A stretch of 41,418 nucleotides of DNA, from the NCBI GenBank assembly GCA_944327105.1, contig CALVGN010000032.1, positions 1-41,418 of the forward strand. The letters are read 5' to 3'. The notes beneath the pieces were generated by a model. That model was not told the origin of the DNA. It worked only from the letters and a program-made list of their open reading frames with translations, and ran no database searches. Below are positions 5,818-35,367 of the stretch, in pieces; within the stretch, counting starts at the first letter, position 1, and every line of letters starts with the position of its first letter. The DNA comes from an uncultured Erysipelotrichaceae bacterium. Lineage in GTDB: Bacteria; Bacillota_I; Bacilli_A; Erysipelotrichales; Erysipelotrichaceae. The position numbers and the translations under genes are program-made.

Positions 5818-5852
5818 TATAATCATCCTCCTTGTTCAACAGGGTTAGTATC

Positions 5853-5889
5853 ATTATAGCATTGTCCAAGGATTCAATGGTTGAACCAT
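5853..5889 (-). promoter_or_regulatory. Extended -10 promoter for the Bax-inhibitor operon, palindrome at -35
   Basis: On the minus strand TGCTATAAT provides an extended -10 (TATAAT at 5858-5853). ATGGTTGAACCAT (5877-5889) starts 19 bases upstream of the -10, where a -35 box would be. No TTGACA-like box is seen. Confidence 0.6.
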
Positions 5890-7389: not shown

Positions 7390-8288
7390 GATTCAATCTC
7401 CCTTATCACTTGATCCATATTATCGATAAATGGATCCACTTCCATCAGTTTATCAAACTGATGGCGAAAGAATGTTCGCTGTCGTTTGGCAAACTGATAT
7501 GAATGGATTTTAACAGTATCGATACAATCCTGACAATTACTTCGATGGTCAAACCATGGTTTAAATTCCTTATACCCGATCCCGCGCAATCCGGGATCAT
7601 CAAAGGTATATCCATGATCTAAAAGTGTTTGAATCTCATCGAGCAATCCATGTTGGATCATTTGATCGACCCGCTTGCTGATGCGGTGTTTTAATCGATC
7701 CCGATCGGTATCCAGATGAATGATTTTGGCATCATAAAGCAATTGATGGGATTGCTTGGCTTCCAGATCGGTTTTGGTCGAACCAGAAGACAATGCGATT
7801 TGCAATGCCCGCATGATCCGTACACGGTTATTGGGATGGAATTTTGATGCACTTTCAGGATCGACTTGGTTCAACCATGCATGCAATGCTTGATTGTCCA
7901 TGGATTCCATCGTGGTTAAAACCATGGGATCCAATGGGGTTTGATCCATAAATTGATAATCATACAGCAACGCTTTGATATACAACCCACTGCCACCGAC
8001 AACGATCGGACAATCCCCATCTTGAAGAATCGCATCAATGCAGGATCGGGCCATATTCTGGAATGTGGCAATATCAAACCGCTGGTTGGGATCAAGGATA
8101 TCCAGCAGATGGTGTTTGACCATCTGCTGTTCATGTTGACTGACTTTCCCACTACCGATGTTTAAACCACGGTAAACCTGGATGGCATCGGCATTGATGA
8201 TCTGACCATGAAGTTTCATGGCCAATTGGATCCCAAGATCACTTTTCCCCACCGCAGTGGGACCAAGGATCACCACCACGGGTTTCAT
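7356..8288 (-). CDS. miaA: tRNA dimethylallyltransferase
   Basis: A 310-residue enzyme that adds the dimethylallyl group of DMAPP to A37 of tRNAs reading UNN codons. The P-loop is GPTAVGKSDLG at residues about 8-18. It is followed by NADAIQVYRGLNIGSGK and GGSGLYIKALLYDY, both conserved in MiaA. The ATG at 8288 overlaps the mutL stop by four bases (ATGA), with AAAGGAG about 9 bases upstream inside mutL. The longer frame to 8354 lies inside mutL and was rejected. mutL-miaA adjacency is common in bacteria. Palindrome copy at 7545 inside. Confidence 0.95.
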   Translation of the reverse strand: MKPVVVILGPTAVGKSDLGIQLAMKLHGQIINADAIQVYRGLNIGSGKVSQHEQQMVKHHLLDILDPNQRFDIATFQNMARSCIDAILQDGDCPIVVGGSGLYIKALLYDYQFMDQTPLDPMVLTTMESMDNQALHAWLNQVDPESASKFHPNNRVRIMRALQIALSSGSTKTDLEAKQSHQLLYDAKIIHLDTDRDRLKHRISKRVDQMIQHGLLDEIQTLLDHGYTFDDPGLRGIGYKEFKPWFDHRSNCQDCIDTVKIHSYQFAKRQRTFFRHQFDKLMEVDPFIDNMDQVIREIESWWLQQAAAHC

Positions 8289-10090
8289 CGGTTGAACTCC
8301 TTTTCCAACAATGCATCTGAAAAATGAAGCATGATGGGACGACCATGCGGACAAGCATAGGGATCGTCACATTGATACAATTGATTGACCACTGCCTGGC
8401 ATTGGTAAATGTCCAGGTATTGATTGAACTTGATACTGGCTTTGCAGGCTTTGGTGGCGATTTTATGACGGATCAGATCATCAATGGATACCGTATGGTT
8501 GGACCATACGGTATCGATGATATCCTGATAAAAGGAAATATCCTGGATATCCCGGCTCCAGCCGGGTAAGGCATGCAATGCAAGATCTTGATTTGAAAAA
8601 GGCGTAAACACTAGTCCCAATGGTTCGACCATAGCATTGAGTATATCCACACCATTGACGATATCCGATCGTACCGGAATGATCAATGGTGTGACCATGG
8701 CATGCTGATCGATATTTTGGGTCATGGTGTTTTTGAATCGTTCATAATGCACCCTTTCTTGCGCTGCATGTTGATCAATGATGACCAGACCATCTTCATC
8801 TTCGGCAATGATGAATTTACCATGGATCTGACCGATGACACGCAATGGGGTGGTATTGACCATCGTGGATGCAAACAAAGAGTGGTGCGTGGAGGGATGA
8901 TCGCATGGATCAGCCATCGCAGGATAATTCGTTTTTTCATTGACCTTCGATAAATCAATCGATGGCTGATCCATGCGGGGATACGATGGTTGAACCATGG
9001 GTTTATGGGATGGTGTTGAACCATACTCATTGGATGGATCATTTGAAACGATGGGTTGATTTATTTTGATACGATCAAAGATCACTTCATTGATGGTCAC
9101 ACCAAGCCCAGCTTTGGATAAAGTATGTTTCAATGCATTGATGATCAATGCATCCAATTGATTTTGTTTACTGATCCGTACATCCAGTTTACCGGGATGG
9201 ACATTGACATCCACCAGACGATGATCCATGGATATATTGACAACGATCAATGGATATTTTCCATTCGCAAAATATTCCTTGGTGGCATCAATGATGACAT
9301 TGGTCAAACCATAGGGTTTGATGTAACGACCATTCAATCCGATGGTGATACCATTTTTATTACTGCGTCCATACTGTGGTAAAGCAAGTACACCATGAAT
9401 CGCCATGTCAAAACCATCTTCATCGATGGTCAATAAGTCCGTGGCGACATCTTTGCCATAAATGGCAAAGATGGTATTTTTATACGATCCTTTTCCATCA
9501 CTTTCAAAGATGGTTTTACCATCATGGATCAACGTAAAAGCCACATTTAAATTCAATAACGCCATCTTTTGGATGGTGGATGTGATCAATGCCAGTTCAT
9601 ACCGGTCATTTTTCAAATGTTTCAATCGTGCAGGGACTTTAGCAAACAGATGTTCCACGATCATTGTCGTTCCCTTGGCACAGGGATATGCATCGCATTG
9701 GATGGTTTGACCATTATCGACAATGATCCGATTCCCCCCACTGCCATCATTGGAGATACACGTGCATAACGATACTGAAGCGATACTGGGAATGGCTTCA
9801 CCACGAAATCCCATGGTATGGATATCAAATAATTGATCCACAGTGGATATCTTACTGGTGGCATGCCTTAAAAATGCCATGATCAGATCATCTTGATCCA
9901 TGCCTATACCATTATCGCTGACACGAATATATTCGATACCACCAGTCTTCAATTCGATTTCGATGGTCGACGCATTGGCATCCAATGCATTTTCCACCAG
10001 TTCCTTGACCACCTGAAGCGGTCGTTCGACCACTTCACCGGCAGCAATCATATTGGTCAATTGTTCATCCAGTATATGTATCTTCGCCAT
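8285..10090 (-). CDS. mutL: DNA mismatch repair protein MutL
   Basis: A 601-residue GHKL ATPase acting with MutS in mismatch repair. N-terminal motifs are VKELVENALDA, DNGIGM, RHATSKI and GFRGEAIPSIASV (residues about 25-110). The C-terminal domain retains the endonuclease motif DQHA-x2-E-x4-E (DQHAAQERVHYE) plus ACKASIKF and CPHGRP, so this MutL should nick DNA itself, as expected where MutH is absent. AAAGGAAA precedes the ATG. The gene carries six perfect palindrome copies, the densest of the window, mostly in the variable linker and C-terminal half. Confidence 0.96.
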   Translation of the reverse strand: MAKIHILDEQLTNMIAAGEVVERPLQVVKELVENALDANASTIEIELKTGGIEYIRVSDNGIGMDQDDLIMAFLRHATSKISTVDQLFDIHTMGFRGEAIPSIASVSLCTCISNDGSGGNRIIVDNGQTIQCDAYPCAKGTTMIVEHLFAKVPARLKHLKNDRYELALITSTIQKMALLNLNVAFTLIHDGKTIFESDGKGSYKNTIFAIYGKDVATDLLTIDEDGFDMAIHGVLALPQYGRSNKNGITIGLNGRYIKPYGLTNVIIDATKEYFANGKYPLIVVNISMDHRLVDVNVHPGKLDVRISKQNQLDALIINALKHTLSKAGLGVTINEVIFDRIKINQPIVSNDPSNEYGSTPSHKPMVQPSYPRMDQPSIDLSKVNEKTNYPAMADPCDHPSTHHSLFASTMVNTTPLRVIGQIHGKFIIAEDEDGLVIIDQHAAQERVHYERFKNTMTQNIDQHAMVTPLIIPVRSDIVNGVDILNAMVEPLGLVFTPFSNQDLALHALPGWSRDIQDISFYQDIIDTVWSNHTVSIDDLIRHKIATKACKASIKFNQYLDIYQCQAVVNQLYQCDDPYACPHGRPIMLHFSDALLEKEFNR

Positions 10091-10122
10091 GGTTTCCTTT
10101 CATTATGGTTGGACCATTGTTG

Positions 10123-12651
10123 TTATTGGTTTTTGTTCATCATTGCTTTTAATTGATAAATCAACTGCAATGCGGATAGTGGGGTCAATGTATCGGGATC
10201 CACCGATCGCAATGCTTCTTCCACTTCACTGGTTTTCGTTTCGATAGTGATGGGTTGGATCTCATCAAATAAGGATGGTTGGACCATGGATGGATTGTTT
10301 TCCATCTGCTGGACCAATACATTGGCCCGACTTAATACCCCACTTGGCAAATGGGCCAATCGTGCCACATGGATCCCATAACTTTTATCCGCTTTCCCTT
10401 TTTCGATGCGATACGTAAATTCGATGGTCGAATCATGTTCCACGACACAGGCATGCACATTGGATATCCCTTCCAAAGTTTGAGATAATTGGGTCAATTC
10501 ATGATAATGTGTGGAAAATAACGTATGACAATGAATGGTCGTACCAATGTATTCGATCATTGCCTGCGCCAGTGCCATCCCATCATAGGTGGATGTTCCT
10601 CGTCCGATCTCATCAAAGATGATCAAGGAATCTTTGGTTGCATGGGATAATGCATGATTGGCTTCGATCATTTCCATCATGAACGTGGATTGACCATTGA
10701 ACAAGTCATCACTGGCACCGATACGGGTATAAATGGCATCATAAATGGGAAATGTCGCTTGAGCGGCCGCCACATAACAGCCGATCTGTGCCAGTATGGC
10801 ATTGATGGCGATCATGCGCATATAAGTGGACTTCCCACCCATATTGGGACCAGTGATCAATAAGAGGTGATGGTTTTGATCTAAAGATACATCATTGGCC
10901 ACACTGCCATGGTTCAACCATTGATCCAATAGTGGATGTTTCCCGTTGACAATGGTCAAACCATTCCCAAATGTGGGCGCAACGAATCCTTTCGATGCCG
11001 AGGTTTCACTTAATGCATAAATGCAATCGATCGCACCCAAACAACTGGCGATCCCATAAAATGCCGGTACATGCGGTATGATGGTTTCAACCAATGCATC
11101 AAACAGATCACTTTCCAACTGGATGGATCTGGTTTGACCATTGATCAATAAATCTTCATGTTCTTTCAATGCAGTGGTGGTAAAGCGTTCCACATTGGTC
11201 AACGTCTGTCTGCGGATATAACCATATTCTTCCTTGATCAGACCAAGATTTCCCTTGGATACTTCCAGACAATACCCAAAGTTTCTGGAATAGACCACTC
11301 TTAAATTCTTGATCCCGGTCAATTCCTTCTGTTGTCTTTCATAGTCGATCAACCATTCTTTATGATGCGCTGCTGCATCGTGATAGTGATCCAATTGCGC
11401 ATTATAACCAGCCTTGAACATCCCACCTTCCTTAGTGGAAACCGGCGGATTGTCCACGATCGCATCATGCAGCAATCGTGCCAGAGATTCAAAACAGTCA
11501 AAATGGTTCAAATTATCAAAGACCGGATCCGATAAAACCGCTTTGATCGATGGTAAAACCATCAATGTTTTGGATAAGCGCAATAGATCGATCGCATTGG
11601 CCCGCTTCATGGCAATACGCGCCGAAAGGCGCGTCAAGTCATAAACGCCGGCCAATGCTTCTTTTAAATCATGCCGAACCAATGCATCCTGGATCAAAAA
11701 CGTGACTTGGTTTTGACGTTTCAATATGGCATTTGGATCTCTTAATGGATTTTCGATCCATTGTTTTAACATGCGTGATCCCAATGCACTTTGACAATGG
11801 TCCAGATAATGCCATAAATTGGCCATGGTCGAACCATGGTGTAACGATTGGGTCAATTCCAGATTCGTTAATGAACCATAATCCAATTTGCAGATCTTGG
11901 TCTCATCCACCAGCTGCATCGGTTGAAGATGGTTGAGCATCTGCTTTTGAGTGGTTTGAAGATAATTCACCAAAATCGAAAATGACTGTTTCACAAACTG
12001 ATCATTCACCTGGGAAACGATCGATGCATACGATGCATCGATCCCATTGCTCTGGCAATACGAGACCGCGATCCCGTTTTTTTGGATATCTTCGATCAAA
12101 TCATGGTTAAAACCATGACTGACCACCAATTCCATGACATTTTGACTCTTCAAACGCGCTAACAATGCTGCCAATTGATGTTCGATGGTATAACCATACA
12201 CTTCCCCGCTGGCCATATCCACGACCGATAGAAGATAATGCAATCCACCATCACACAATGCACCAATGGTAATCGTGGTCTTCTCATCTTCCACATCAAT
12301 AAACGTCCCGGGTGTCACCACCCGGATCACATCCCGCCTGACCATCCCTTTGGCCGTTTTCGGATCTTCCATCTGTTCCACGATGGCCACTTTTTTCCCC
12401 AGTTGCACCAACTTCTGGATATAGACATTGACACTTTTATGTGGCACTCCAGCCATCGGGGCTTTTTCCGACAATCCGGCATTTTTTCCCGTCAATACCA
12501 GATCCAGTAAACGTGACGCTTCCAATGCATCTTCAAAAAACAATTCATAAAAATCACCGGTACGATAAAAGATCAGGCAATCCGGCAAACTATCCTTGAC
12601 ACTTCGCCAATGCGCCAGCATTGGTGAAAGCTGTTCCTTTTTTTCATCCAT
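10123..12651 (-). CDS. mutS: DNA mismatch repair protein MutS
   Basis: An 842-residue mismatch-recognition ATPase. The N-terminal mismatch motif is in YRTGDFYELFFEDA. Walker A is GPNMGGKSTYM near residue 600, Walker B is IIFDEIGRGTSTYDG, and THYHEL follows. Length is normal for MutS1. It is the first gene of mutS-mutL-miaA-tcdA; mutL starts 32 bases after its stop, with one palindrome (10105-10117) in the gap. No ribosome binding site precedes the ATG, but TACAAT lies 7 bases upstream, suggesting a leaderless message. An internal ATG ten codons in has AAAGGA about 13 bases before it and is a weaker alternative. Confidence 0.96.
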   Translation of the reverse strand: MDEKKEQLSPMLAHWRSVKDSLPDCLIFYRTGDFYELFFEDALEASRLLDLVLTGKNAGLSEKAPMAGVPHKSVNVYIQKLVQLGKKVAIVEQMEDPKTAKGMVRRDVIRVVTPGTFIDVEDEKTTITIGALCDGGLHYLLSVVDMASGEVYGYTIEHQLAALLARLKSQNVMELVVSHGFNHDLIEDIQKNGIAVSYCQSNGIDASYASIVSQVNDQFVKQSFSILVNYLQTTQKQMLNHLQPMQLVDETKICKLDYGSLTNLELTQSLHHGSTMANLWHYLDHCQSALGSRMLKQWIENPLRDPNAILKRQNQVTFLIQDALVRHDLKEALAGVYDLTRLSARIAMKRANAIDLLRLSKTLMVLPSIKAVLSDPVFDNLNHFDCFESLARLLHDAIVDNPPVSTKEGGMFKAGYNAQLDHYHDAAAHHKEWLIDYERQQKELTGIKNLRVVYSRNFGYCLEVSKGNLGLIKEEYGYIRRQTLTNVERFTTTALKEHEDLLINGQTRSIQLESDLFDALVETIIPHVPAFYGIASCLGAIDCIYALSETSASKGFVAPTFGNGLTIVNGKHPLLDQWLNHGSVANDVSLDQNHHLLLITGPNMGGKSTYMRMIAINAILAQIGCYVAAAQATFPIYDAIYTRIGASDDLFNGQSTFMMEMIEANHALSHATKDSLIIFDEIGRGTSTYDGMALAQAMIEYIGTTIHCHTLFSTHYHELTQLSQTLEGISNVHACVVEHDSTIEFTYRIEKGKADKSYGIHVARLAHLPSGVLSRANVLVQQMENNPSMVQPSLFDEIQPITIETKTSEVEEALRSVDPDTLTPLSALQLIYQLKAMMNKNQ

Positions 12652-12712: not shown

Positions 12713-14260
12713 TCACTCGCTCACATTTCTGATCTTCGCGGCGATCTGCGCATCGATGATCTTTTTGACCAGATAACTGTTTGCACCCAACAAGATCCCA
12801 TATCCGCTGCGTTTTTCAAAGATCCGATTGACGCCATATTTACGTAAGGCATACGGATCGATGATGGTATTGTCATAAACAGCCACTGTGCATTGGGTCA
12901 AACTGGCATTGACGAATTTGAAGTTTTCCACCCCGCCAAAGGCCGAAATGATCCCTTTGGCAAGCGGTAGCAGTTCTGCGCCGAATGTTTTGATATCGCG
13001 ACGTTTGAAATAGTATGAGATCACTGCAAAATAAATGATCCCGACGATCAAACCGACACCAAGGATTGCGATGCAGGTGAACCGATAGCGGTAATTGGCC
13101 AGATAAATGACGAATTCGACGATATTTCCAGGGATCGAAGTAATCGTGCTGGTGCCCACGAATCCCAGTGTGATGCCCACTGTATTCAAGATCCCAAACA
13201 ATGCCGCCATCATCAGCAAATGGAACAGATACAAAAAAGGTGAAACGATCAACAGGAACAATTCAAAGGGCAGTATCCCACCGCCGAAAATGGATAGCAA
13301 CATGCATACCCCCAACAAAAACAAGGTGCGTTTGCGTTCCATCTTGTCCGAATTGATGCGATATAACGCGATCAAGGATATCGGGATCACGATCAAATTC
13401 ATCACATAATACGGAGTGATCAGTCTTCCGGCATAACTGATGGTCAAATTGTCGGCGATCACGGCAGAGAATATCGACACATCCCCGCTGATGGCCTGAC
13501 CGGCGATGGTAGTGATCGAACCACCGGCATTACCAAACCAGAAGGGAGCGCGGATCAAGGAACTTAATGAGAACAGAGAACCGATGCGATCCAGCAAGCC
13601 ATAGCTCATCAAATTGATGGGATTGTTGAGATCTGAAGCCACAAATGTGATCATCGATTGCAAAAATTCATAGGCATAGGTCCATACAAACGAAAAGGCA
13701 AAACTGGCGATGATGGATAAGACCACCGTATAAACCAGGCCTCTTAGATCGGGATCGACATTGCCGAATAAGCCGATGGATGTGGTATTGCGTAATCGTT
13801 TGGAAACAAAGCGGACGATCACAATGATGATGATCGGACCAAAAATACCACTGATCAAAGGATAATTCACGCGATTGGCGAATTCGGCAATGGTGGAATT
13901 GTTGATGGAAATACCAAGGGTAGCATTATAAGCGGAACTGTCCAGTTTGTTCATGGAAAAGAAAATGGAAAAGACGACGAAGGTGATATAACCCACCAAT
14001 CCCATGGATATGTTGCGATAGGCTTGGTTTTTACTGATCACCAGACGAAACAGCATGAACAAGGGACTGTATATAATCAAAAATTGACCGATCCTTAAAA
14101 ACCCTTCGCCAAACATCAGGGCGATGGGGGAATCGATGACGTATAAAGAATAAAAGGCGGGATTGGTGATGATCTGACCAATGACGGTCAATGCGCAGCC
14201 AAATGCCACCAGTTTGACGATGAGCGATAATGGTTCATACAGGTTATGCCATTTGCGCAT
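12713..14260 (-). CDS. Degenerate PTS EIIC-EIIB-like permease (catalytic Cys replaced)
   Basis: A 515-residue protein with about ten membrane helices followed by an EIIB-like domain (residues about 440-510). It resembles glucose-superfamily PTS permeases (APFWFGNAGG, then ISGDVSIF). Two key sites differ. The conserved GITEPIEF-type loop reads GGILPFEL, losing the usual ITE glutamate. The EIIB phosphorylation motif (ACITRLRV-type) reads ASLTQCTV, with Ser in place of the phospho-Cys. A Cys lies four residues later but is out of register. It may be a non-PTS transporter or a sensor. AAGGAGG precedes the ATG. No palindrome copies are inside. Confidence 0.75.
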   Translation of the reverse strand: MRKWHNLYEPLSLIVKLVAFGCALTVIGQIITNPAFYSLYVIDSPIALMFGEGFLRIGQFLIIYSPLFMLFRLVISKNQAYRNISMGLVGYITFVVFSIFFSMNKLDSSAYNATLGISINNSTIAEFANRVNYPLISGIFGPIIIIVIVRFVSKRLRNTTSIGLFGNVDPDLRGLVYTVVLSIIASFAFSFVWTYAYEFLQSMITFVASDLNNPINLMSYGLLDRIGSLFSLSSLIRAPFWFGNAGGSITTIAGQAISGDVSIFSAVIADNLTISYAGRLITPYYVMNLIVIPISLIALYRINSDKMERKRTLFLLGVCMLLSIFGGGILPFELFLLIVSPFLYLFHLLMMAALFGILNTVGITLGFVGTSTITSIPGNIVEFVIYLANYRYRFTCIAILGVGLIVGIIYFAVISYYFKRRDIKTFGAELLPLAKGIISAFGGVENFKFVNASLTQCTVAVYDNTIIDPYALRKYGVNRIFEKRSGYGILLGANSYLVKKIIDAQIAAKIRNVSE

Positions 14261-14280: not shown

Positions 14281-15057
14281 TCAGAATAACTGGGATAGAC
14301 GATTGAGATAACTCATGGTCTTACCATGTACGATATGGACTTTACGATGACTTAATGTGGTTTCAACCATGGTACAGCCATCCAATGGATACGAAAGGGC
14401 ATCGATGCCTAAACGTGCATTTTCAAAGGATGGACTGACCATTTTGATCTGACTGGTTGCGGATAAGATCAATGGGGATTGAAATGAACGGTATGCCATA
14501 TGGTGGATACCGGCAATGGGGGTCATTTCAATGGCATCCAACCCTTCCTGGATCACCGCTCCACCAATGGAGCGGTTATAAGCGGTGGAACCGAGTTGAG
14601 TGGTCACACACATGCCGGTTCCACGGTAGTCTTCAAAATATTCACCATTGATACTGATCTGCATATCCAATGAAACGACGATGTTTTCCACACGGCATTC
14701 ATTGACCGCATAGAAAATATGGTGATGACCATCCGTTTTAACGGATAATAAAGGATAATCATGGATCACCAGTGTATTGGTGGTCAGATCATGGATCAAC
14801 AGATCCACTTCATCATCTTTGTAATCGCATAAAAATCCCAGTGTTCCGGTTTTGATCCCCACGAATTTCATGGTTTCAACATGGTCGATATATTGGGATA
14901 TTCCATGGAGCATGCTGCCATCTCCACCGACAACGATGACCGTTGTCGGGTTGATTGGATCATAGATCCACCCGTTTGTGGTCAGTTTATAGCGGATATT
15001 ATCGGCATACGCATGGCTTTTTTGGTCATCTCGGATGATAATATCAAATCTTTCCAT
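14281..15057 (-). CDS. nadK: NAD kinase
   Basis: A 258-residue enzyme that phosphorylates NAD to NADP. It has the GGDGSMLHG motif near residue 38, the NECRVEN segment, and the Gly-rich GTGMCVTTQLGSTAYNRSIGG. I chose the ATG at 15057 because family alignment begins at MERFDIII. The frame extends to 15117, but that crosses the divergent promoter and CYTH start. There is no ribosome binding site. The start codon is the outer ATG next to an ATGGTTTTACCAT copy, and TATAAT ends 9 bases upstream, so the message is probably leaderless or nearly so. Confidence 0.92.
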   Translation of the reverse strand: MERFDIIIRDDQKSHAYADNIRYKLTTNGWIYDPINPTTVIVVGGDGSMLHGISQYIDHVETMKFVGIKTGTLGFLCDYKDDEVDLLIHDLTTNTLVIHDYPLLSVKTDGHHHIFYAVNECRVENIVVSLDMQISINGEYFEDYRGTGMCVTTQLGSTAYNRSIGGAVIQEGLDAIEMTPIAGIHHMAYRSFQSPLILSATSQIKMVSPSFENARLGIDALSYPLDGCTMVETTLSHRKVHIVHGKTMSYLNRLSQLF

Positions 15058-15076
15058 GGTAAAACCATTATATAAT
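15056..15076. promoter_or_regulatory. Overlapping divergent promoters for nadK and the CYTH gene
   Basis: ATTATATAAT (15067-15076) reads as TATAAT on both strands: minus 15072-15067 for nadK, plus 15071-15076 for CYTH. The start codons lie only 9 and 6 bases downstream. The palindrome ATGGTAAAACCAT (15056-15068) overlaps the nadK start and the CYTH promoter spacer, so one bound protein could affect both directions. Confidence 0.6.
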
Positions 15077-15082
15077 ATTTGC

Positions 15083-15622
15083 ATGCAGCAGAATTTGGAA
15101 ATTGAAACCAAGGTCATGATCAGTAAATCGACCTACCATCACATCTCAAGTACCTGTGAATTTGAACAAACATTTTCTCAATATAACCACTACTACAAAG
15201 CGATGGTCCAACCAGACGGCTCATCGTTACGGATCAGAAAAGTCAAAGATCGATTCTTGTTTACCATGAAAGTCAATGAAGGGGATTATAAACGGGAATA
15301 TGAAGAATATCTGGATGACGATAACATCGATGATCCAAAATTAAAACCATTGTTTGATCAACTCCATGTGGAAGGACCATTTACTGTTCTTGGTCAAAGC
15401 CATACCTTACGCTCTGTTTTGACCATCAAAGCCGGAACGATCTTCGTCGATCATACCTACTTTGACTGGGGCGATGATTTTGAAATCGAATTTGAAGCCA
15501 AGGATACGAATGAAGAAACCACCAATGAATTTTATAAATGGTTAAGATTCCATCATGTGGCCTATACCAAAAGCACCGCTTCAAAAATGAAGCGGGCATT
15601 GAACAAACCCAAAGAAAAATAA
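15083..15622 (+). CDS. CYTH-domain protein (triphosphate tunnel enzyme family)
   Basis: A 179-residue single-domain CYTH protein. The N-terminal EIETKV motif is the hallmark metal/triphosphate-binding ExExK. SLRIRKV, FTMKV and YKREYEEYL supply the basic and acidic tunnel residues, and FEIEFEAKD follows. Firmicute relatives (YjbK type) hydrolyse inorganic triphosphate or bind organic triphosphates; ppx-ppk elsewhere in the window makes a polyphosphate link plausible but unproven. The ATG at 15083 is chosen because EIETKV begins six residues later; TATAAT lies 6 bases upstream and no ribosome binding site is seen. Confidence 0.85.
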   Translation: MQQNLEIETKVMISKSTYHHISSTCEFEQTFSQYNHYYKAMVQPDGSSLRIRKVKDRFLFTMKVNEGDYKREYEEYLDDDNIDDPKLKPLFDQLHVEGPFTVLGQSHTLRSVLTIKAGTIFVDHTYFDWGDDFEIEFEAKDTNEETTNEFYKWLRFHHVAYTKSTASKMKRALNKPKEK

Positions 15623-16956: not shown

Positions 16957-17381
16957 TGGTTCCCTCCTTTGAATAGTCTGATCTTTTCTTGAATCGACGC
17001 ATCATCATAACTCAATAATCTGCCATAGCGATATGCATACGCTTCATCATGGTCATGATCATTTACTGCGTTGGATTGATCGACTTCTTTTTTAAGTTGC
17101 AGATATTGATCATAGATCGCTGGATCTTTGATCAACAATACCACATATCTTCCGGTGTTATGAAACAATATGGTTTCAACCAAAGAAGTCTCTTCATAAG
17201 CATGGATATGGTATTTATCCGCCGCGATGCGTGCATATTCTAAATCTTTAAGATACGTGGGATAGTCATTGGTTGCATGCGACAATGCCATGGATTTGAC
17301 CCCGGCGGATACGACTTCCGCAAAAGCGTCAATGACGCCATTGCGGAAGTCTTGGTTTGTTTCTAATGGTTGAGCGGCCAT
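16953..17381 (-). CDS. Conserved-looking protein of unknown function
   Basis: A 142-residue soluble acidic protein I do not recognise. There is no signal peptide or membrane segment. A mid-region reading HNTGRYVVLLIKDP suggests an alpha/beta core, and the C-terminal half is rich in Asp, Tyr and His. It overlaps the upstream HAD gene by 19 bases and the DJ-1 gene by 4, so it belongs to a tightly coupled three-gene operon, the main reason to believe it is real. Its ribosome binding site inside the HAD gene is weak. Confidence 0.7.
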   Translation of the reverse strand: MAAQPLETNQDFRNGVIDAFAEVVSAGVKSMALSHATNDYPTYLKDLEYARIAADKYHIHAYEETSLVETILFHNTGRYVVLLIKDPAIYDQYLQLKKEVDQSNAVNDHDHDEAYAYRYGRLLSYDDASIQEKIRLFKGGNQ

Positions 17382-18208
17382 AATTCATCCATCCCAAGAT
17401 TCAGCTCTTTGTTCAATGCAAATGCAACGCCCAATTCTTCACTGGGTTTAGTCACCCATTTACTGACCGCCATGATGGTGGGTTCCCCATTGCCCATGGC
17501 AATGCCTAATGCTGCATCACGGATCATTTCATAATCATTCATGGAATCCCCGATGGCAATGACACCGTTCAAGTCATAACCATGGGTCTTGCAGACCCAT
17601 TTGATACCTTCATATTTATTACTGGCTTTTCCGGTGATTTCGTAATATTGATTGCTGTTTGGCATGATGCTTCCGGGAACCACGGTATATTTGGTTCCCC
17701 ACTGATCAATGATCGGTCTGGTTCTCTCCACATCATAGGTAGTGACATTCACTTTATAGATGGCTGAATCATGATAATCCGTGCCATTATTATAAATTTT
17801 TAACATCCGTTGATGATGTTCGTTTGGCATTGGACGATGATAATTCTGCGTTTCCACTTCTTCTCGGCGTTTGCCTAAGATATAGTCTTTGCGACCGGAC
17901 AAAAAGACGCCCATACCGTAAGATAACGCATCATTAACGATATCATCCACGATGTCCATGGGCATGATATCTTCGTACACGACGTGGTTGTTTTCAATGA
18001 CCATGCATCCGTTGACCAGAACAAATCCATCGACTTCTTTTGGTTCGACCATCCCGACAGCGTCGGCACCGCGACCGGTACAGATATAAACCTTATGCCC
18101 CTTACGCCGGGCTAGTTTGATGGCTTCGTGATTTTCAGGGGCGATCTGTTGATCGCCAAATGGCAATAATGTTCCATCAATATCCAGAAATACTGTACGT
18201 TGTTTCAT
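17363..18208 (-). CDS. Cof-type HAD-superfamily phosphatase
   Basis: A 281-residue HAD phosphatase. Motif I FLDIDGTLLPFG is near residue 8-19. Motif II is CTGRG, Lys of motif III is in GKASNKYEGIKW, and motif IV is IGDSMNDYEMI near residue 225. The large C2-type cap suggests a small phosphorylated metabolite; the substrate is unknown. AGAGG lies before the ATG. It heads the operon with the unknown protein and the DJ-1 protein. An extended -10 promoter with the palindrome at -35 lies upstream. Confidence 0.88.
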   Translation of the reverse strand: MKQRTVFLDIDGTLLPFGDQQIAPENHEAIKLARRKGHKVYICTGRGADAVGMVEPKEVDGFVLVNGCMVIENNHVVYEDIMPMDIVDDIVNDALSYGMGVFLSGRKDYILGKRREEVETQNYHRPMPNEHHQRMLKIYNNGTDYHDSAIYKVNVTTYDVERTRPIIDQWGTKYTVVPGSIMPNSNQYYEITGKASNKYEGIKWVCKTHGYDLNGVIAIGDSMNDYEMIRDAALGIAMGNGEPTIMAVSKWVTKPSEELGVAFALNKELNLGMDELWPLNH

Positions 18209-18230: not shown

Positions 18231-18267
18231 ATTATACCAATCTTCCTTATTTCCATGGTTGAACCAT
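18231..18267 (-). promoter_or_regulatory. Extended -10 promoter of the HAD-unknown-DJ-1 operon, palindrome at -35
   Basis: TGGTATAAT on the minus strand (TATAAT at 18236-18231) is an extended -10. ATGGTTGAACCAT (18255-18267) begins 19 bases upstream, the same geometry as at 5853-5889. Confidence 0.6.
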
Positions 18268-18667
18268 GTTAAGGAAATATAAATATTATGGATTAATTCA
18301 TCGTATACACTGAAAACCGTTTATCTTCTATTGATTTGTTTCGTGTATTGGAAAACAACCTTTTTAAAAAAAACAGTCTTCAATCACTTAATCGAATCAA
18401 ATCCATCTGCGCAGAGTCATCGAAACGTTCAAATTTGTTACGTTACACTTATTCATTTGCATAAATAACGCAATAATTATTGATAAACGGCTTTTAAATA
18501 AAATGTTCTTGAAGGAAAATCAAAATTGTCATATCGATCGACAATAAATATGACAATTTGACTTACTCAAAAAACAAAAAATACGTCAAAATTGCGTCTT
18601 ATCGTTTCATCTTCACGTCAACATAGCATACCGCGTTGAAAACCTCTCTAGAATTGGAAGGTTGAAT
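18268..18667. other. AT-rich gene-free stretch with a 12-bp inverted repeat
   Basis: About 400 bases with no supported gene. They are visibly more AT-rich than the left flank and begin exactly where the iterated palindrome stops. AAATTGTCATAT (18523-18534) and ATATGACAATTT (18548-18559) form a perfect 12-bp inverted repeat with a 13-base loop. No T run follows, so an operator or recombination site is likelier than a terminator. No integrase or tRNA is nearby. Confidence 0.6.
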
Positions 18668-18838
18668 GTGCTCGAATCTTTACGTAAAGCTAAGGGATTA
18701 ACACAAACACAATGTGCTTCAATACTTGTACTATCTCTACGGACTTATCAACGATATGAAAAAAAACGAATCCATGGTGAAGCCATTGATTTTGAATACC
18801 ATCAAATCGCGTATCGAACAATACAACCAAATAAGTGA
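18668..18838 (+). pseudogene. HTH (XRE) half of a frameshifted HTH-nucleotidyltransferase gene
   Basis: GTG at 18668 follows GGAAGG by 6 bases. The 56-codon frame begins VLESLRKAKGLTQTQ and continues through an XRE helix-turn-helix (LRTYQRYEK). After the A8 tract at 18759-18766 it runs into unrelated sequence and stops at 18838. Removing one A joins it in frame to the nucleotidyltransferase below, giving a 164-residue protein matching the known HTH-MntA-type fusion (short XRE domain, NES-containing linker, then NTase). It is thus one broken or slippage-expressed gene rather than two. Confidence 0.65.
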
Positions 18839-19163
18839 AACAACCGGCATCCTTTCATTGGAATCCATCACCAAAACCGTAACAACGATCCTTTCAAACT
18901 ATGATGTTCAATTCTGTTATCGGTTTGGCTCTTATGCCAAGGGCAAACCGACTCCGATCAGTGATGTAGATTTGTTCATTGACGGAACAAATATTCACGG
19001 TCTTGATTATTTCGGATTAATTGAGGATTTGCGCGAAACTTTGCACAAGAAGGTAGATCCGATCCATTTCGATGACTTTTCTGCCAGTCCGTCGCTGCAA
19101 ATGAAAATGCTTAAAGATGGCATTCGGATCTATCGCAAATCTGATCTTTCCATGCACCGCTAA
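18756..19163 (+). CDS. MntA-like nucleotidyltransferase domain (second half of the frameshifted gene)
   Basis: This 135-residue frame carries the minimal nucleotidyltransferase motif FGSYAKGKPTPISDVDLFID (GSY...DxD), then VDPIHFDD and the typical end MLKDGIRIY. Family members AMPylate HEPN-type toxins or act as stand-alone enzymes; no HEPN partner is adjacent here. The ATG at 18756 has no ribosome binding site and lies inside the HTH frame, so expression likely depends on translation or slippage from 18668. If an A is lost at 18759-18766 the two halves fuse. The frame itself is open back to 18714. Confidence 0.7.
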   Translation: MKKNESMVKPLILNTIKSRIEQYNQISETTGILSLESITKTVTTILSNYDVQFCYRFGSYAKGKPTPISDVDLFIDGTNIHGLDYFGLIEDLRETLHKKVDPIHFDDFSASPSLQMKMLKDGIRIYRKSDLSMHR

Positions 19164-19186
19164 AGCATCAGGTACCCTACCAATCA

Positions 19187-19214
19187 AAAAGGTGAACCGA
19201 TCGATTCACCTTTT
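19187..19214. terminator. Bidirectional terminator between the nucleotidyltransferase and reductase genes
   Basis: AAAAGGTGAA (19187-19196) pairs with TTCACCTTTT (19205-19214). Both sides end in T runs on their own strand, and the two flanking genes converge here. Confidence 0.85.
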
Positions 19215-19240
19215 CTTTGGGATTTACAAAAGCCTCAGGA

Positions 19241-20953
19241 CTACTCGCTCAACGCAACAGCAGCTTGTGTTCCGGCAATGCGACCGAAGCACACGGAAGC
19301 GCTGTATCCACCACTTTGCCATGCCACTTCACCAGCAGCATACAGATTCGGAACGATGGAACCATCTTCATATTGAACCTGGGCATTTTCATTGGCGACC
19401 ACGCCACCTTTGGTCATGTGTAACGCTGGTTCGACACGAACACCATAATACGGACCTTCCGCATCAATGGGACGGGTGCCATCTTCACCCAGCGATTCCT
19501 GAGCTTCGTTGTAAGCCGCAACGTTTTCAGCCAGTGCGGCACCATCGATGCCCAATGCTTCACCCAATTCTTCCAGAGTCGCACCTTCACTGTAGTAACC
19601 TAAACCAACATGTTTGCGGATACGATAGAAGGAATCATAACCGGTGGAATCGGTGATGTAGAAGGTTGCGCCATCGGTTTGTTCAGCCATCTGGTTGTAA
19701 CGATCCAAACCACTGAGATTCTCGAGCAATTCACCTTCTTTATTGACCAGTAAATTCAAATCCGCACCGCCGGTCAGATCACGACGCGGAACGATGATGT
19801 TGGCAAACACACTCGGACGATCCATGTTCTGCAGGGCCATACCATGGGATTCAAAGACTTTGACAAAATCGCCGGTTGCACCCATTTGGTTGGATGTGTT
19901 CAACACTTCATAACCTGGCAAGTATTCAGCAACCAGATCTTTATTGGCGCAGAAGCCACCCGTTGCAACGATGGTTTGTGCAGCCATGATGTTGTAGCGT
20001 TCATTGGTATGGGTATCCAGTACCTGAACACCAACCACAGCGTCTCCATCCATGACGAAGTCTTCACCTTTGGTACCGGTGATGATGGTCACACCAAGAC
20101 GTTCGGCTTCAGCTTCCATACCGGACTGGATCACTTCACCAGCATATTGGTCTTCTTCAGCCATATGGTTGGTTGCGGAATAGTTGTAATTCAATTCAAC
20201 GCCCATATCGCGTAACCACTGGTCCATGGTCCATTCTTCATTGGCCCATGCTTCGATGCGTTCAGCGGTTTCGCCACTTTCCGCTTTCATTTCGATAAAA
20301 TCTTCCAAGGTATAGGTATTACCGGTTTCTTCCTGAGCTTTGGAATTGATCAGGTCGAAATAGTTCATATCGAACTTACCGTTACCGCTTAAAATATCCA
20401 ATTTTTCAACCACGGTAACATCCAAATCGGCATTGGCCTGTTTCGCAGCGATCGCTGCACCTAAACCAGCCGGACCACCGCCGATGATCACGATATCGGT
20501 GGTGATATCATCGATCACTGTGGGTTCGACCCCTTCAAAGCTGGGGAATTCACGAACAACTTCACCTTCCACGGTCAAACCATGCTGTTCCATGGCATCT
20601 GCCACAGCCTGTTTGACAGCGTAGGATGAGAATGTTGCAGCGGAAACGCTGTCAACCACCGGGGAATTGGCTTCCAGGATCCGTTCACGGATCACCGGGA
20701 ACGCTCTGTCGATGACCACATTGGTTTCGTGGTTGTCACCCAATTCGATATCGGTGATCGTATCCCCTTGGATGGAAACCTTCACATTCATCTCTCCGCC
20801 GTAACCGCTGGCGCTCACTTCATAAACAGCGACTTCGCCTTCGGCAGCACCGGTAGAGGCAGGTTGTGTGGTTTCAGTCGACGTTGTGCTCGAGCATGCT
20901 GCCAAAGATAACAACATCGCTGCGGAGCAAAGTACTTTACTCAAACGATTCAT
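19241..20953 (-). CDS. FMN-binding, FAD-dependent fumarate-reductase-like lipoprotein (flavocytochrome c family)
   Basis: A 570-residue exported lipoprotein. The signal peptide ends in lipobox LAAC (Cys about 20), followed by a Ser/Thr linker. An FMN-binding domain (about 40-125) contains DSVSAATFSS, close to the DxxSGAT site to which ApbE attaches FMN. A FAD-binding domain follows (IVIIGGGPAGLGAAIAAKQA, near 155) with the C-terminal fumarate-reductase/3-ketosteroid-dehydrogenase type fold (HMTKGGVVAN, then YAAGEVAW). It should reduce an external acceptor using electrons from a membrane donor; the acceptor is unknown. GGAGG precedes the ATG. GC content looks higher than in its AT-rich flanks, and the palindrome is absent. 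Confidence 0.88.
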   Translation of the reverse strand: MNRLSKVLCSAAMLLSLAACSSTTSTETTQPASTGAAEGEVAVYEVSASGYGGEMNVKVSIQGDTITDIELGDNHETNVVIDRAFPVIRERILEANSPVVDSVSAATFSSYAVKQAVADAMEQHGLTVEGEVVREFPSFEGVEPTVIDDITTDIVIIGGGPAGLGAAIAAKQANADLDVTVVEKLDILSGNGKFDMNYFDLINSKAQEETGNTYTLEDFIEMKAESGETAERIEAWANEEWTMDQWLRDMGVELNYNYSATNHMAEEDQYAGEVIQSGMEAEAERLGVTIITGTKGEDFVMDGDAVVGVQVLDTHTNERYNIMAAQTIVATGGFCANKDLVAEYLPGYEVLNTSNQMGATGDFVKVFESHGMALQNMDRPSVFANIIVPRRDLTGGADLNLLVNKEGELLENLSGLDRYNQMAEQTDGATFYITDSTGYDSFYRIRKHVGLGYYSEGATLEELGEALGIDGAALAENVAAYNEAQESLGEDGTRPIDAEGPYYGVRVEPALHMTKGGVVANENAQVQYEDGSIVPNLYAAGEVAWQSGGYSASVCFGRIAGTQAAVALSE

Positions 20954-21186
20954 AAAACCTCCATATTTCAGTACTGAGAACCATTTTAATCACAAAACGC
21001 ACACATTTAAAACATATTTTTAATTGAAACAGTGATTTTTCATACGAATTTCAATTATTGTGAAAGAATTAACACATAATTCGTCATCATCCTTTTCAAA
21101 TATCTTCGGCAAATTCGTATACTTTAAATTCGGAAGCGATACCAAAATTATGAAAACCATTTTCACTTCAACGAAAAATTACTGAC

Positions 21187-21951
21187 TTAAATCAGAAGTT
21201 CACTTCTATGTATAGAAATATAGCTAAAAAAGGCCGTCGGCTTAAAATCAATCAGAATGAAAATACTGGTATTCAAAACATAGATTTCCGAATGTTGTAC
21301 AAAATGCTCGTATTGTCGATCATATATTTCAAGGCCAGACCACTTCAAAAATGCCAATTCTGAGGGAGCTTCGTATCTGCCACAAATAACGAAATTCGCT
21401 TTTCTTAAATGGTGTACAGTCAATGCAATCAGCGTTTGATAATCATATTTTGTCAAATCACTGTATTTGCTGACTTTTCCAACCCTCTCTTTATAATTCC
21501 AGCATTCATTCACATCTACAGACAAAGTGCAAAATGATGGATCCGGCAATCGATTAAAATGTTTGTAAGATTGCATCATCGGATAATTAATAAACATTTT
21601 CCCCTGATCTGTCGATTCGTTAAAATACTGGATCATACGCCGGATCGTTGCAAAATTTGAACGAACTTCGTGAGGTTCAAAGTCAAAAACCATAAAAATA
21701 TCCGTGTAGGAATGATTCAGTATATTTTTTTGTTGATCGTCTGTTTCATACGATCGTAGCATCCTAAGTATATCAACTGAACCATCATCGAAATCCGGAT
21801 AATCCATCTCAAGACGTGTCGCCAAAACATGAACATTGGTTTTATATGTATAAAAGGCAAATGCATCTGGAAAGCAAATGGAAAACATTTTGCTGAAAAA
21901 AGCGGGTTCATCAACGGCTCCTTCCACAATAAAAAGGACGTCACGACTCAT
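21187..21951 (-). CDS. RloB/Toprim-like protein of an ATPase-linked pair
   Basis: A 254-residue protein whose N-terminus VLFIVEGAVDEPAFFSKMF resembles the VEG-x-x-(T/D)E segment of RloB/AbiLii and Toprim nucleases. VFDFEPHE near residue 95 could be the acidic metal site. The rest is unassigned. The ATG at 21951 has GGTGAG 5 bases upstream; a GTG at 21960 is an alternative. It overlaps the ATPase gene by about 10 bases, so both are one transcript. With an AAA15 partner, the likeliest reading is a nuclease or effector in phage defence (RloAB, AbiL or PARIS-like). That function is inference. Confidence 0.6.
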   Translation of the reverse strand: MSRDVLFIVEGAVDEPAFFSKMFSICFPDAFAFYTYKTNVHVLATRLEMDYPDFDDGSVDILRMLRSYETDDQQKNILNHSYTDIFMVFDFEPHEVRSNFATIRRMIQYFNESTDQGKMFINYPMMQSYKHFNRLPDPSFCTLSVDVNECWNYKERVGKVSKYSDLTKYDYQTLIALTVHHLRKANFVICGRYEAPSELAFLKWSGLEIYDRQYEHFVQHSEIYVLNTSIFILIDFKPTAFFSYISIHRSELLI

Positions 21952-23071: not shown

Positions 23072-23092
23072 GTTTTTGTCCTCTATAAGAAA

Positions 23093-23121
23093 ACTATAAG
23101 GCGTAACAGCACCAAAATCAA
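23093..23121 (-). promoter_or_regulatory. Promoter of the ATPase/RloB-like pair
   Basis: On the minus strand TTGATT (23121-23116) and TATAGT (23098-23093) are spaced by exactly 17 bases, about 20 bases before the ATPase start codon. This is a conventional promoter without the palindrome. Confidence 0.6.
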
Positions 23122-23142
23122 CATTGCCGTAATTTTTTTACG

Positions 23143-23179
23143 GAAAAAAGGATCAACTTCATGCTTCGAAGTTGATCCT
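23143..23179 (-). terminator. Terminator of the uppP-ccdA operon
   Basis: AGGATCAACTTC (23149-23160) pairs with GAAGTTGATCCT (23168-23179), and TTTTTT follows on the minus strand. It ends seven bases after the ccdA stop. Confidence 0.88.
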
Positions 23180-23185
23180 ATTTCA

Positions 23186-28956: not shown

Positions 28957-28996
28957 ATTATATCCTATACGATCGATTTTTTTATGGTTTAACCAT
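28957..28996 (-). promoter_or_regulatory. secA: Promoter region of secA with upstream palindrome
   Basis: TATAAT (minus strand, 28962-28957) lies 33 bases before the secA ATG. ATGGTTTAACCAT (28984-28996) begins 22 bases further upstream, at or just above the -35 place, and also contains the comFC stop codon. Confidence 0.5.
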
Positions 28997-30765: not shown

Positions 30766-30814
30766 ATGGTTTAACCATGAAATAATCCATACACTCCATG
30801 CTACAATCAAAGCC
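30766..30814 (+). promoter_or_regulatory. Extended -10 promoter of a leaderless HAD gene
   Basis: TGCTACAAT gives an extended -10 (TACAAT at 30802-30807), with only seven bases between it and the ATG. ATGGTTTAACCAT (30766-30778) ends 23 bases above the -10. It also lies just upstream of the divergent comFA start. Confidence 0.55.
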
Positions 30815-34446: not shown

Positions 34447-35367
34447 ATGCATCCAGTCGGCATCATCGATTTAGGCAGTAATACGGTTCGTTTGTCCATC
34501 TATACCGTGGATCAAACCAACCACTTTGAAAATCTGCTCAATAAAAAAGAAACCGTCGGTTTAGCCGGTTATATCGAAAACGGACGAATGAGCGAAGCCG
34601 GCATCAGCCGGGCAATCGCCACATTATCCCGTTTTAAAACCATCTTGGAAGGATTCAACATCAGCGATGTCCATGTATTAGCCACCGCACCTTTGCGCAA
34701 TATTGACAATACCAGTGAATGCATTGATCGTATCCAATTCCATACCGGATTGAATATCGATTTGCTTAGTGGAGAAGAAGAAGCCACATTGGATTTTGAT
34801 GGCGCCATGTTATGTACCGATTTATCCGATGGTTTACTCATCGATATCGGTGGTGGATCCACCGAATTGGTCTGTTTCAAAGACCGTTCCATCTTGCAAG
34901 CCGTTTCCTTACCCATTGGTTCATTAAGCGGCTATACCCGTTATTTCAAAACACTGACCCCTTCTAAAAAACAAATCAAAGCCTTAAAGGAAAACGTCAA
35001 GGAATTATTATCTGTCGCAGATTTTATCAAAACACAGAATACTTCCAATGCTGTCGGTGTGGGTGGATCGATCCGGGCGGTCAATAAATGTTTCAAACGT
35101 TTACATTCCCTCAATGAAAATATGGTTTTAACCACCCAGCAGATCAATGAATTATATAAATTGATCAAAACCATGGATGATGATGGGTTGAATCTCGTAT
35201 TAAAGGCCGCACCGGATCGCATCCACACCATCATCTCTGGTATGACCATCTTAACCACCATTCTCAATCATTTTGATGTATTGAATTTAACCATCTCTTC
35301 CTATGGTGTCCGGGAAGGCTATTTGAATCAATGGTTAAACCATCAGGAGTTACACCATGGCGCGTGA
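34447..35367 (+). CDS. ppx: Ppx/GppA-family exopolyphosphatase
   Basis: A 306-residue actin-fold phosphatase. It has IIDLGSNTVRLSIY (about 5-18), a GEEEA segment near 118, and LLIDIGGGSTELVCF near 143. It releases phosphate from polyphosphate or the terminal phosphate of pppGpp; the short single-module length favours the former or either. AAAGGAG precedes the ATG. The last 11 bases overlap ppk, making a polyphosphate turnover operon. A perfect palindrome lies only at its 3' end (35331-35343, encoding WLNH). Confidence 0.9.
   Translation: MHPVGIIDLGSNTVRLSIYTVDQTNHFENLLNKKETVGLAGYIENGRMSEAGISRAIATLSRFKTILEGFNISDVHVLATAPLRNIDNTSECIDRIQFHTGLNIDLLSGEEEATLDFDGAMLCTDLSDGLLIDIGGGSTELVCFKDRSILQAVSLPIGSLSGYTRYFKTLTPSKKQIKALKENVKELLSVADFIKTQNTSNAVGVGGSIRAVNKCFKRLHSLNENMVLTTQQINELYKLIKTMDDDGLNLVLKAAPDRIHTIISGMTILTTILNHFDVLNLTISSYGVREGYLNQWLNHQELHHGA

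What the first reader, a model, noticed from the sequence alone, without database searches (positions are those of the whole stretch)
15056..15083. nadK and CYTH genes share one ten-base double -10 and start 25 bases apart
ATTATATAAT serves both strands, and both starts follow within 6-9 bases, so two polymerases cannot bind at once. The palindrome sits on top. This is a compact mutually exclusive switch between NADP synthesis and a triphosphate-binding enzyme.
Basis: partly seen in the sequence, partly recalled or inferred. Interest (0 to 1): 0.5.

Follow-up and report, generated by a model that had tools for sequence, protein, structure and literature searches.

The report
Genome-wide palindrome on a two-way promoter
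Two neighbouring genes read in opposite directions seem to start from one shared promoter that is conserved in many relatives, and the short mirror-image sequence lying on it is one of 836 copies scattered through this one bacterium's genome, many of them inside genes.

Summary
ATTATATAAT (15067-15076) is a perfect -10 hexamer on both strands. nadK (ATG 15057, -) and a CYTH gene (ATG 15083, +) start 9 and 6 nt from it. The layout matches a core, most often ATTGTATCAT, in relatives' nadK/CYTH gaps (52 of 80; shuffles at most 3 of 80): a conserved bidirectional promoter, predicted starts 23 bp apart. Relatives' gaps have median 58 bp, mostly with ribosome sites; here 25 nt and none, so CYTH should be leaderless and nadK nearly so. 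A "switch" is not supported: published E. coli bidirectional promoters do not compete at basal activity.

The larger result is the palindrome on top, ATGGTAAAACCAT (15056-15068). ATGGTNNNACCAT occurs 836 times in this 1.6-Mb genome (reversed control 1; 0-23 in each of 293 other genomes of the order). It also occurs with a 4-nt spacer, is densest between divergent genes, peaks 46-60 nt before starts, and has written its translation into the proteome. It behaves like cyanobacterial HIP sequences but looks like the site of a dimeric DNA-binding protein (PdhR/FadR-like core).

The parts
14281..15057 (-). nadK (NAD kinase), ATG at 15057
15083..15622 (+). CYTH-domain protein, ATG at 15083
15058..15082 (.). 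25-nt gap between the two start codons, no Shine-Dalgarno-like site on either side
15067..15076 (.). double -10 ATTATATAAT (bidirectional promoter core)
15071..15076 (+). -10 TATAAT for CYTH; predicted start 15083 = A of the ATG (leaderless)
   Evidence: 7-bp spacing from PMC12825309; inferred
15067..15072 (-). -10 TATAAT for nadK; predicted start 15060, 3-nt leader
   Evidence: 7-bp spacing from PMC12825309; inferred
15056..15068 (.). copy of the iterated palindrome, ATGGTAAAACCAT, overlapping the nadK ATG and the double -10
14315..14327 (.). iterated palindrome copy inside nadK
12185..12197 (.). iterated palindrome copy in mutS (others in mutS start at 10275, 10909, 10952, 11550, 11825)
8495..8507 (.). 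iterated palindrome copy in mutL (others in mutL start at 8620, 8686, 8986, 9342, 9510, 9702); one at 10105 between mutL and mutS
5877..5889 (.). iterated palindrome copy, centre 57 nt upstream of the ORF at 5104-5826 (-)
18255..18267 (.). iterated palindrome copy, centre 53 nt upstream of the ORF at 17363-18208 (-), before a TATAAT
28984..28996 (.). iterated palindrome copy, centre 52 nt upstream of the secA-like ORF (26365-28938, -; named by eye), before a TATAAT
30766..30778 (.). iterated palindrome copy in the divergent gap between the ORFs at 29574-30740 (-) and 30815-31642 (+)
35331..35343. iterated palindrome copy 20 nt before the 35357 start; the remaining exact copies of the 40 in the window are listed

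Best explanation
Two layers share this spot. (1) An inherited bidirectional promoter: two -10 elements on opposite strands overlap by 2 bp (ATTRTATMAT layout), so RNA polymerase binds in one orientation or the other and gives divergent starts about 23 bp apart, which at ordinary activity should co-express nadK and CYTH rather than switch between them. In this lineage the gap shrank to 25 nt and both ribosome sites were lost, so CYTH should be leaderless and nadK nearly so. (2) A genome-wide iterated palindrome, ATGGTNNNACCAT (also with a 4-nt spacer), kept or spread by a DNA-level process across coding and intergenic DNA, here lying across the nadK start. Its form (two 5-bp arms, nearly invariant TG at arm positions 2-3, two tolerated spacers) fits best as the binding site of a dimeric sequence-specific protein of PdhR/FadR type that has become chromosome-wide. 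At nadK such a protein would cover -10 and start codon and dampen both genes. Shown: sequence, conservation, counts, distribution, proteome imprint. Inferred: transcription starts, leaderless translation, any binding protein, its identity and its effect.
For: Promoter: the core family (ATTGTA[TCA]CAT, ATTATATCAT or ATTTTATCAT) is in 52 of 80 relatives' gaps, dinucleotide-shuffle mean 0.17, max 3 in 100 rounds; exact ATTGTATCAT in 30 of 80, shuffles 0 (50 and 28 of the 78 distinct gaps). Both hexamers at least 5/6 in 51 of 80, shuffle mean 9, max 15. SD-like sites (a liberal pattern) on the nadK side in 74 and the CYTH side in 65 of 80, on neither side in the window. 23 bp is a common TSS distance of bidirectional promoters (PMC12825309). 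Palindrome: 40 in the window, 0.21 expected; 836 in the genome, reversed control 1; 0-23 in each of 293 other genomes of the order; for ATGGTTNAACCAT 173 against at most 5 in 394 other genomes of the class. In 441,118 bases: spacer 3 gives 264, spacer 4 gives 71, the other spacers from 0 to 11 give 0-9; single mismatches number 264 at arm position 1, 9 at 2, 11 at 3, 74 at 4, 67 at 5. It heads the list of over-represented 5+5 palindromes. Synonymous shuffles of coding DNA give mean 39.8, max 51 in 40 shuffles, observed 190; density 2.18/kb in divergent gaps, 1.29 and 1.09 in other gaps, about 0.5/kb in coding DNA; 24 sites in the bin 46-60 nt before starts, neighbouring bins 10 and 12. Peptide [DNHY]GxT[IM]: 152 (119 per 100,000 aa) against 6 (5.2) in relatives' stretches, 143 of 152 encoded by the exact motif. 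The core GGTnnnACC is the PdhR box core (PMC7660256, passages).
Against: No expression or binding data. 28 of 80 relatives' gaps lack the core family, and 27 loci and 6 of 40 had no divergent CYTH detected close to nadK, so the layout is not universal. Most palindrome copies lie in coding DNA (189 of 264), unusual for a transcription-factor site. The synonymous shuffle leaves 39.8 copies, well above the Markov expectation, because the motif-encoded peptides are themselves enriched. I know of no PdhR-like protein that accepts a 4-nt spacer. The candidate protein seems to differ from FadR at recognition-helix residues (recalled, not tested), and its own tandem sites (TGGTCTGACCA, TGGTCAGACCA) are not the commonest form of the motif. 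The composite TATAATGGTNNNACCATG seen at nadK appears 3 times in the 100 places listed (of 151 matches), about what 836 sites would give by chance (about 2, my estimate). Some own stretches hold few copies (L161 and L168, 3 each in 20 kb).
Confidence: 0.6

Rival explanations
1. One reading: a mutually exclusive switch between NADP synthesis and a triphosphate-binding enzyme.
For: One double -10, so binding is exclusive at any instant; conserved in relatives.
Against: Basal bidirectional promoters tested in E. coli do not compete (PMC12825309, abstract and passages). No -35 was found for either TATAAT; the palindrome is genome-wide, not local. Activator sites were not searched for systematically.
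Confidence: 0.08
2. The palindrome is a HIP in the strict sense: a by-product of a DNA methyltransferase whose methylation biases mismatch repair, with no binding protein needed.
For: Density (836 in 1.61 Mb, one per 1.9 kb), dispersion over genes and gaps and restriction to one lineage resemble HIPs, for which such a model exists (PMC4390886, section 3.4 part 1).
Against: Two spacers (3 and 4) are both enriched, odd for one methyltransferase. The two methyltransferase families searched gave a type I HsdM beside two HsdS-like ORFs, a type-III-like Mod split over two ORFs, and a weak HsdM-family hit in an ORF that does not look like a restriction gene (names by eye); types I and III usually read asymmetric sites (recalled). 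Families PF00145 and PF02086 were not searched.
Confidence: 0.17
3. The palindrome is a DNA uptake sequence for natural transformation.
For: Copy number and spacing are in the range of uptake sequences (recalled); ComF/ComFA-like ORFs lie at 28982-30740 (recognised by eye, not searched); mutS and mutL carry 13 copies.
Against: Known uptake sequences are not palindromic (recalled) and I know of none in this phylum; the two-spacer form and the peak 46-60 nt before starts are not explained.
Confidence: 0.08
4. The palindrome acts as an RNA hairpin (5-bp stem, loop of 3-4).
For: Only spacers 3 and 4 are enriched, the smallest loops an RNA hairpin allows. With spacer 4, changes at position 1 that keep a G-U pair outnumber those that break it (49 against 12), and at position 5 for both spacers (19 against 4; 7 against 4).
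Against: The sense-strand test is not consistent: position 4 goes the other way for both spacers (21 kept against 30 broken; 6 against 19), and position 1 with spacer 3 is even (39 against 37). Codon constraints may cause the differences. The enriched stems are variants of one sequence.
Confidence: 0.05
5. The promoters of nadK and CYTH lie elsewhere (inside each other's coding sequence, with leaders) and the double -10 is unused.
For: No -35 for either TATAAT and no TG before either hexamer; relatives keep 19-61 nt between core and nadK start.
Against: Position matches the relatives' conserved core; the scan of 2.2 kb finds fewer promoter-like sites than its shuffles.
Confidence: 0.15

Closest known systems
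Bacterial bidirectional promoters (Warman, Grainger and colleagues)
   Same: Overlapping -10 elements on opposite strands, predicted starts 23 bp apart (a common distance according to PMC12825309), exclusive polymerase binding
   Different: Conserved between one gene pair across many genera; in this lineage both leaders and ribosome sites are gone; not measured experimentally
Highly iterated palindromes (HIP1 GCGATCGC and alternates) of cyanobacteria
   Same: Hundreds of dispersed copies at about one per 1-2 kb, in genes and gaps, a lineage-specific palindrome, strong excess over chance
   Different: Interrupted 5+3+5 (and 5+4+5) palindrome with 10 fixed bases, not GC-rich, outside cyanobacteria, no matching methyltransferase identified, proteome imprint measured
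PdhR/FadR-type GntR operators, AATTGGTnnnACCAATT
   Same: Core GGTnnnACC identical; dimer-like symmetry; some copies at promoters
   Different: 35 targets for PdhR (PMC7660256) against 836 exact copies here, mostly in coding DNA; second spacer of 4; outermost base only loosely kept
matS sites of MatP, GTGACRNYGTCAC (recalled)
   Same: 13-bp palindrome with 5-bp arms and 3-nt centre, chromosome-scale
   Different: Different arms, far more copies (matS: a few tens, recalled), present in all 21 stretches sampled rather than one macrodomain

Membership tests
Bidirectional promoter | Overlapping -10 elements on opposite strands | tested here: met
   ATTATATAAT, 6/6 on both strands
Bidirectional promoter | TSS pair at about 10, 18 or 23 bp | not testable with these tools
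   Predicted 15060/15083 = 23 bp; not mapped
Bidirectional promoter | Conserved as a unit (my added test, not part of the published definition) | tested here: met
   52 of 80 relatives' gaps, 28 without
HIP (highly iterated palindrome) | Large excess of one palindrome over chance, dispersed | tested here: met
   836 against reversed control 1; 3-40 copies in each of the 21 stretches sampled
HIP (highly iterated palindrome) | Present within coding sequence | tested here: met
   189 of 264 wholly inside ORFs; 190 against 39.8 under synonymous shuffling
HIP (highly iterated palindrome) | Cognate methyltransferase in the genome | tested here: inconclusive
   Type I and split type III only in two families searched, plus one weak hit; PF00145 and PF02086 not searched; specificity untested
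PdhR/FadR-type operator | GGTnnnACC core | tested here: met
PdhR/FadR-type operator | FCD/FadR-type GntR protein in the genome | tested here: met
   One of five GntR hits, G000:C27:11405-12154, FCD 27.2 bits over cut-off 24.3; of the other four, two carry UTRA and two no second domain above cut-off
PdhR/FadR-type operator | Binding shown | not testable with these tools
   No binding assay
DNA uptake sequence | Non-palindromic word (recalled) recognised by uptake machinery | tested here: not met
   Motif is a perfect palindrome; recognition not testable

The most novel reading that the evidence does not exclude
A bacterial lineage has turned the operator of a single GntR/FCD-type regulator into a chromosome-wide code: thousands of TGGT-N3/4-ACCA sites, strong enough to rewrite amino acids, bound by one protein that acts both as promoter regulator and as nucleoid organiser. 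The candidate gene carries a 13-bp tandem of such sites at its own start, the only one in the DNA scanned, and lies between infB-rbfA-like genes and an Xer-type recombinase gene.
Probability: 0.25. Interest if true: 0.85.

Novelty: new variant of a known kind. Interest (0 to 1): 0.6.

Why it matters
Highly iterated palindromes have been a puzzle of cyanobacteria since they were described in 1995 (as cited in PMC4390886). A second, unrelated and interrupted palindrome in a small genome of another phylum, not seen in its relatives and visibly marking its proteins, gives a natural comparison of the methylation and protein-binding explanations. The promoter itself is a modest but clear case of a bidirectional promoter conserved across many genera.

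Tried and rejected
Chance palindrome: rejected. Codon or protein bias as the whole cause: rejected by synonymous shuffling, though shuffling still leaves 39.8 copies because the motif-encoded peptides themselves are enriched. A motif shared by the order or class: not seen in the genomes sampled. Other iterated palindromes in relatives: not seen in one 17-20 kb stretch from each of 20 relatives; the commonest 5+5 palindrome of any of them has 6 copies, against 3-17 in the 20 own stretches (4 of the 20 own stretches have a top count of 7 or less) and 29 in the first 20 kb of the window. The composite TATAATGGTNNNACCATG (nadK, a TetR-like gene, a trmB-like gene) as a special element: three copies seen, about chance. 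RNA hairpin: mixed, no consistent support. A regulator present only in this genome: the FCD regulator has long homologues (27-29% identity) in G020, G042 and G047, whose motif counts are 4, 5 and 7, and some weaker, shorter ones; most other hits cover mainly the DNA-binding domain, so presence/absence does not single it out. Literature: no iterated palindrome outside cyanobacteria appeared in the listings (TGGTNNNACCA) listed three papers, of which I read passages of one.

Limits: ORFs were called crudely (90 aa or more, greedy), start codons by nearest in-frame start. In one search the script moved the window's CYTH start by 12 nt, so I use for the window and left it out of the 80. The 80 gaps hold 78 distinct sequences and are not independent phylogenetically.

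It also had 28 instead of 29 copies in the first 18.3 kb, left out the spacer-4 hairpin counts, and described from its top-four list only; one search gives the full maxima.

Full report
What is at the coordinates. The gap between the nadK ATG (15057, minus strand) and the CYTH ATG (15083, plus strand) is 25 nt, GGTAAAACCATTATATAATATTTGC. ATTATATAAT at 15067-15076 is a perfect TATAAT on both strands, sharing 2 bp. Gene identities are supported by Pfam and by matches in 52 of 60 genomes for CYTH and 56 of 60 for nadK, the window's own genome being one of the 60.

Is it more than chance? ATTATATAAT occurs 7 times in the 1.61-Mb genome, so about 7e-5 copies are expected in a gap of this size. The stronger test is conservation. 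In many relatives nadK and CYTH are also divergent, with a median gap of 58 bp (52 of 80 gaps at most 60 bp). Of 80 relatives' gaps, 52 hold the core family ATTGTA[TCA]CAT / ATTATATCAT / ATTTTATCAT (dinucleotide-shuffle mean 0.17, maximum 3 of 80 in 100 rounds) and 30 hold exactly ATTGTATCAT (shuffles 0); of the 78 distinct gaps the numbers are 50 and 28. Read as the window is, ATTGTATCAT gives TATCAT on the plus strand and TACAAT on the minus strand, the latter preceded by TGA (an extended -10), with the same 2-bp overlap. So the window's double -10 is most simply an inherited bidirectional promoter. Results against: 28 of the 80 gaps lack the core family; 27 loci and 6 of 40 showed no divergent CYTH close to nadK; the second family (f2) often shows longer gaps and other arrangements.

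What changed in this lineage. Shine-Dalgarno-like sites (a liberal pattern, not shuffle-controlled) are found on the nadK side in 74 and on the CYTH side in 65 of the 80 relatives' gaps, but on neither side in the window; 150 of 278 ATG-starting ORFs in the sampled part of this genome have one. With the 7-bp -10 to start distance used for bidirectional promoters (PMC12825309, passages), starts are predicted at 15083, the A of the CYTH ATG, and 15060, three nt before the nadK ATG, 23 bp apart; 23 bp is one of the common distances in that paper. Short leaders may be more general here: TATAATN{5,9}ATG occurs 151 times against 44 for the reversed pattern, and -10-like hexamers upstream of ORFs show a small group 5-9 nt from the ATG (12) besides the main peak at 20-29 nt (36). 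These are inferences; no transcript was seen.

Switch or not. Exclusive binding follows from the geometry. A switch does not: for all five E. coli bidirectional promoters tested, basal transcription was too low for competition, and repression of the partner appeared when transcription in one direction was substantially raised (PMC12825309, abstract and passages). The consensus scan gave no -35 for either TATAAT. The expected behaviour is steady co-expression.

The palindrome on top. ATGGTAAAACCAT at 15056-15068 overlaps the nadK start codon and the edge of the double -10. The pattern ATGGTNNNACCAT occurs 40 times in the window, 0.21 expected, largest of 100 shuffles 2, and 836 times in the genome against 1 for the reversed control. 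In 293 other genomes of the order it occurs 0 to 23 times each; ATGGTTNAACCAT occurs 173 times here and at most 5 times in 394 other genomes of the class. No other genome of this genus turned up among those searched. In one 17-20 kb stretch from each of 20 relatives the commonest 5+5 palindrome has 6 copies.

Anatomy of the palindrome. In a sample of 441,118 bases (27% of the genome) there are 264 copies with a 3-nt spacer and 71 with a 4-nt spacer; the other spacers from 0 to 11 give 0 to 9. Fourth-order Markov sequences give 4-11 and 3-10. Single mismatches are common at the outermost base (264), fewer at the fourth and fifth (74, 67), and nearly absent at the second and third (9, 11). TGGTT-N1-AACCA and TGGTT-N2-AACCA follow it in the list of most over-represented palindromes. 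Relaxed sites TGGT-N3-ACCA and TGGT-N4-ACCA number 643 and 280 against 27-36 and 22-40 expected, which scales to roughly 3,000 sites genome-wide (my extrapolation). Some sites pair at a 21-bp centre distance (8 pairs).

Where it lies. 189 of 264 copies are wholly inside ORFs, in all three frames but mostly one (142, 32, 15). Synonymous shuffling within genes gives 39.8 on average, maximum 51 in 40 shuffles, against 190 observed. Outside ORFs it is denser: 2.18 per kb between divergent genes (18 sites), 1.29 between co-directional (36) and 1.09 between convergent genes (10), against about 0.5 in coding DNA. Sites peak in the bin 46-60 nt before start codons (24, neighbouring bins 10 and 12) and within 15 nt after stops (20). 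The reading frames leave a mark in proteins: [DNHY]GxT[IM] occurs 152 times (119 per 100,000 residues) against 6 (5.2) in relatives' stretches, and 143 of the 152 are encoded by the exact motif; MVxP 79 against 5. Residues encoded by the motif match homologues less than residue-matched background (0.32 against 0.48; 200 residues, 44 genes with homologues), so the motif sits at, or creates, poorly conserved positions; residues within 10 of a motif are also below background (0.39), so part of the effect is regional.

What reads it. The core GGTnnnACC is that of PdhR, a GntR-family regulator (PMC7660256, passages; family recalled). The genome has five GntR-domain hits. One, G000:C27:11405-12154, has an FCD domain (27.2 bits, cut-off 24.3); two carry UTRA and two show no second domain above cut-off. 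Between a TACAAT and the FCD gene's start lie TGGTCTGACCA and TGGTCAGACCA 13 bp apart, the only 13-bp pair in the roughly 456 kb scanned, which suggests autoregulation. The gene lies downstream of infB- and rbfA-like ORFs and faces an Xer-type recombinase ORF (names by eye). Against it: the iterated motif prefers TGGTT over TGGTC, long homologues exist in three relatives without motif excess, and no binding is shown. Other DNA-binding families were not examined. The methylation model for HIPs (PMC4390886, abstract, passages and section 3.4 part 1) is not excluded: only two methyltransferase families were searched, giving a type I system, a split type III one and one weak hit.

Verdict. The promoter is an ordinary kind of thing, well conserved and unusually compact. 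The palindrome is the surprising part: by behaviour a highly iterated palindrome, by form a protein operator, seen in this one genome only.

Noticed in passing
window 18268-28983: Only one exact palindrome copy in about 10.7 kb (23349), against 29 in the first 18.3 kb; the whole window (0.97 per kb) is nearly twice as dense as the genome (0.52 per kb).
   Followed up: partly
window 8285-12651: mutL and mutS carry 13 exact palindrome copies between them, plus one in the gap between them (10105), reminiscent of the reported bias of uptake sequences towards repair genes (recalled).
   Followed up: no
G000:C3:30697, C5:14137, C15:31525, C19:46042: Repeated ATTATATAAT followed by (A/G)TTGGTATG; those on C3, C15 and C19 lie about 30-110 bases from contig ends (lengths), so probably a repeated gene family or mobile element at assembly breaks.
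   Followed up: no
L242 1051-2546 (G000:C25, around 12.0-13.0 kb): A type-III-like methyltransferase matching PF01555 in two pieces in two ORFs, next to a restriction-helicase-like ORF: broken or phase-variable.
   Followed up: partly
L159 504-4657 (G000:C3): Type I restriction locus (names by eye): HsdM, two HsdS-like ORFs and two tyrosine-recombinase-like ORFs between them, suggesting a shufflon-like HsdS inversion system.
   Followed up: no
G000 genome: TATAATN{5,9}ATG 151 times against 44 for the reversed control: leaderless or short-leader transcripts may be common in this lineage.
   Followed up: partly
L164 around 6653 and 8538, L167 around 17107 and 19205, L174 7321, L175 16516: Pairs of palindromes with 21-22 bp between centres, about two helical turns: possible cooperative binding.
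   Followed up: partly
window 12713-14260: 515-aa ORF between mutS and nadK that looks by eye like a PTS-type membrane transporter, without any Pfam hit at 0.001.
   Followed up: no
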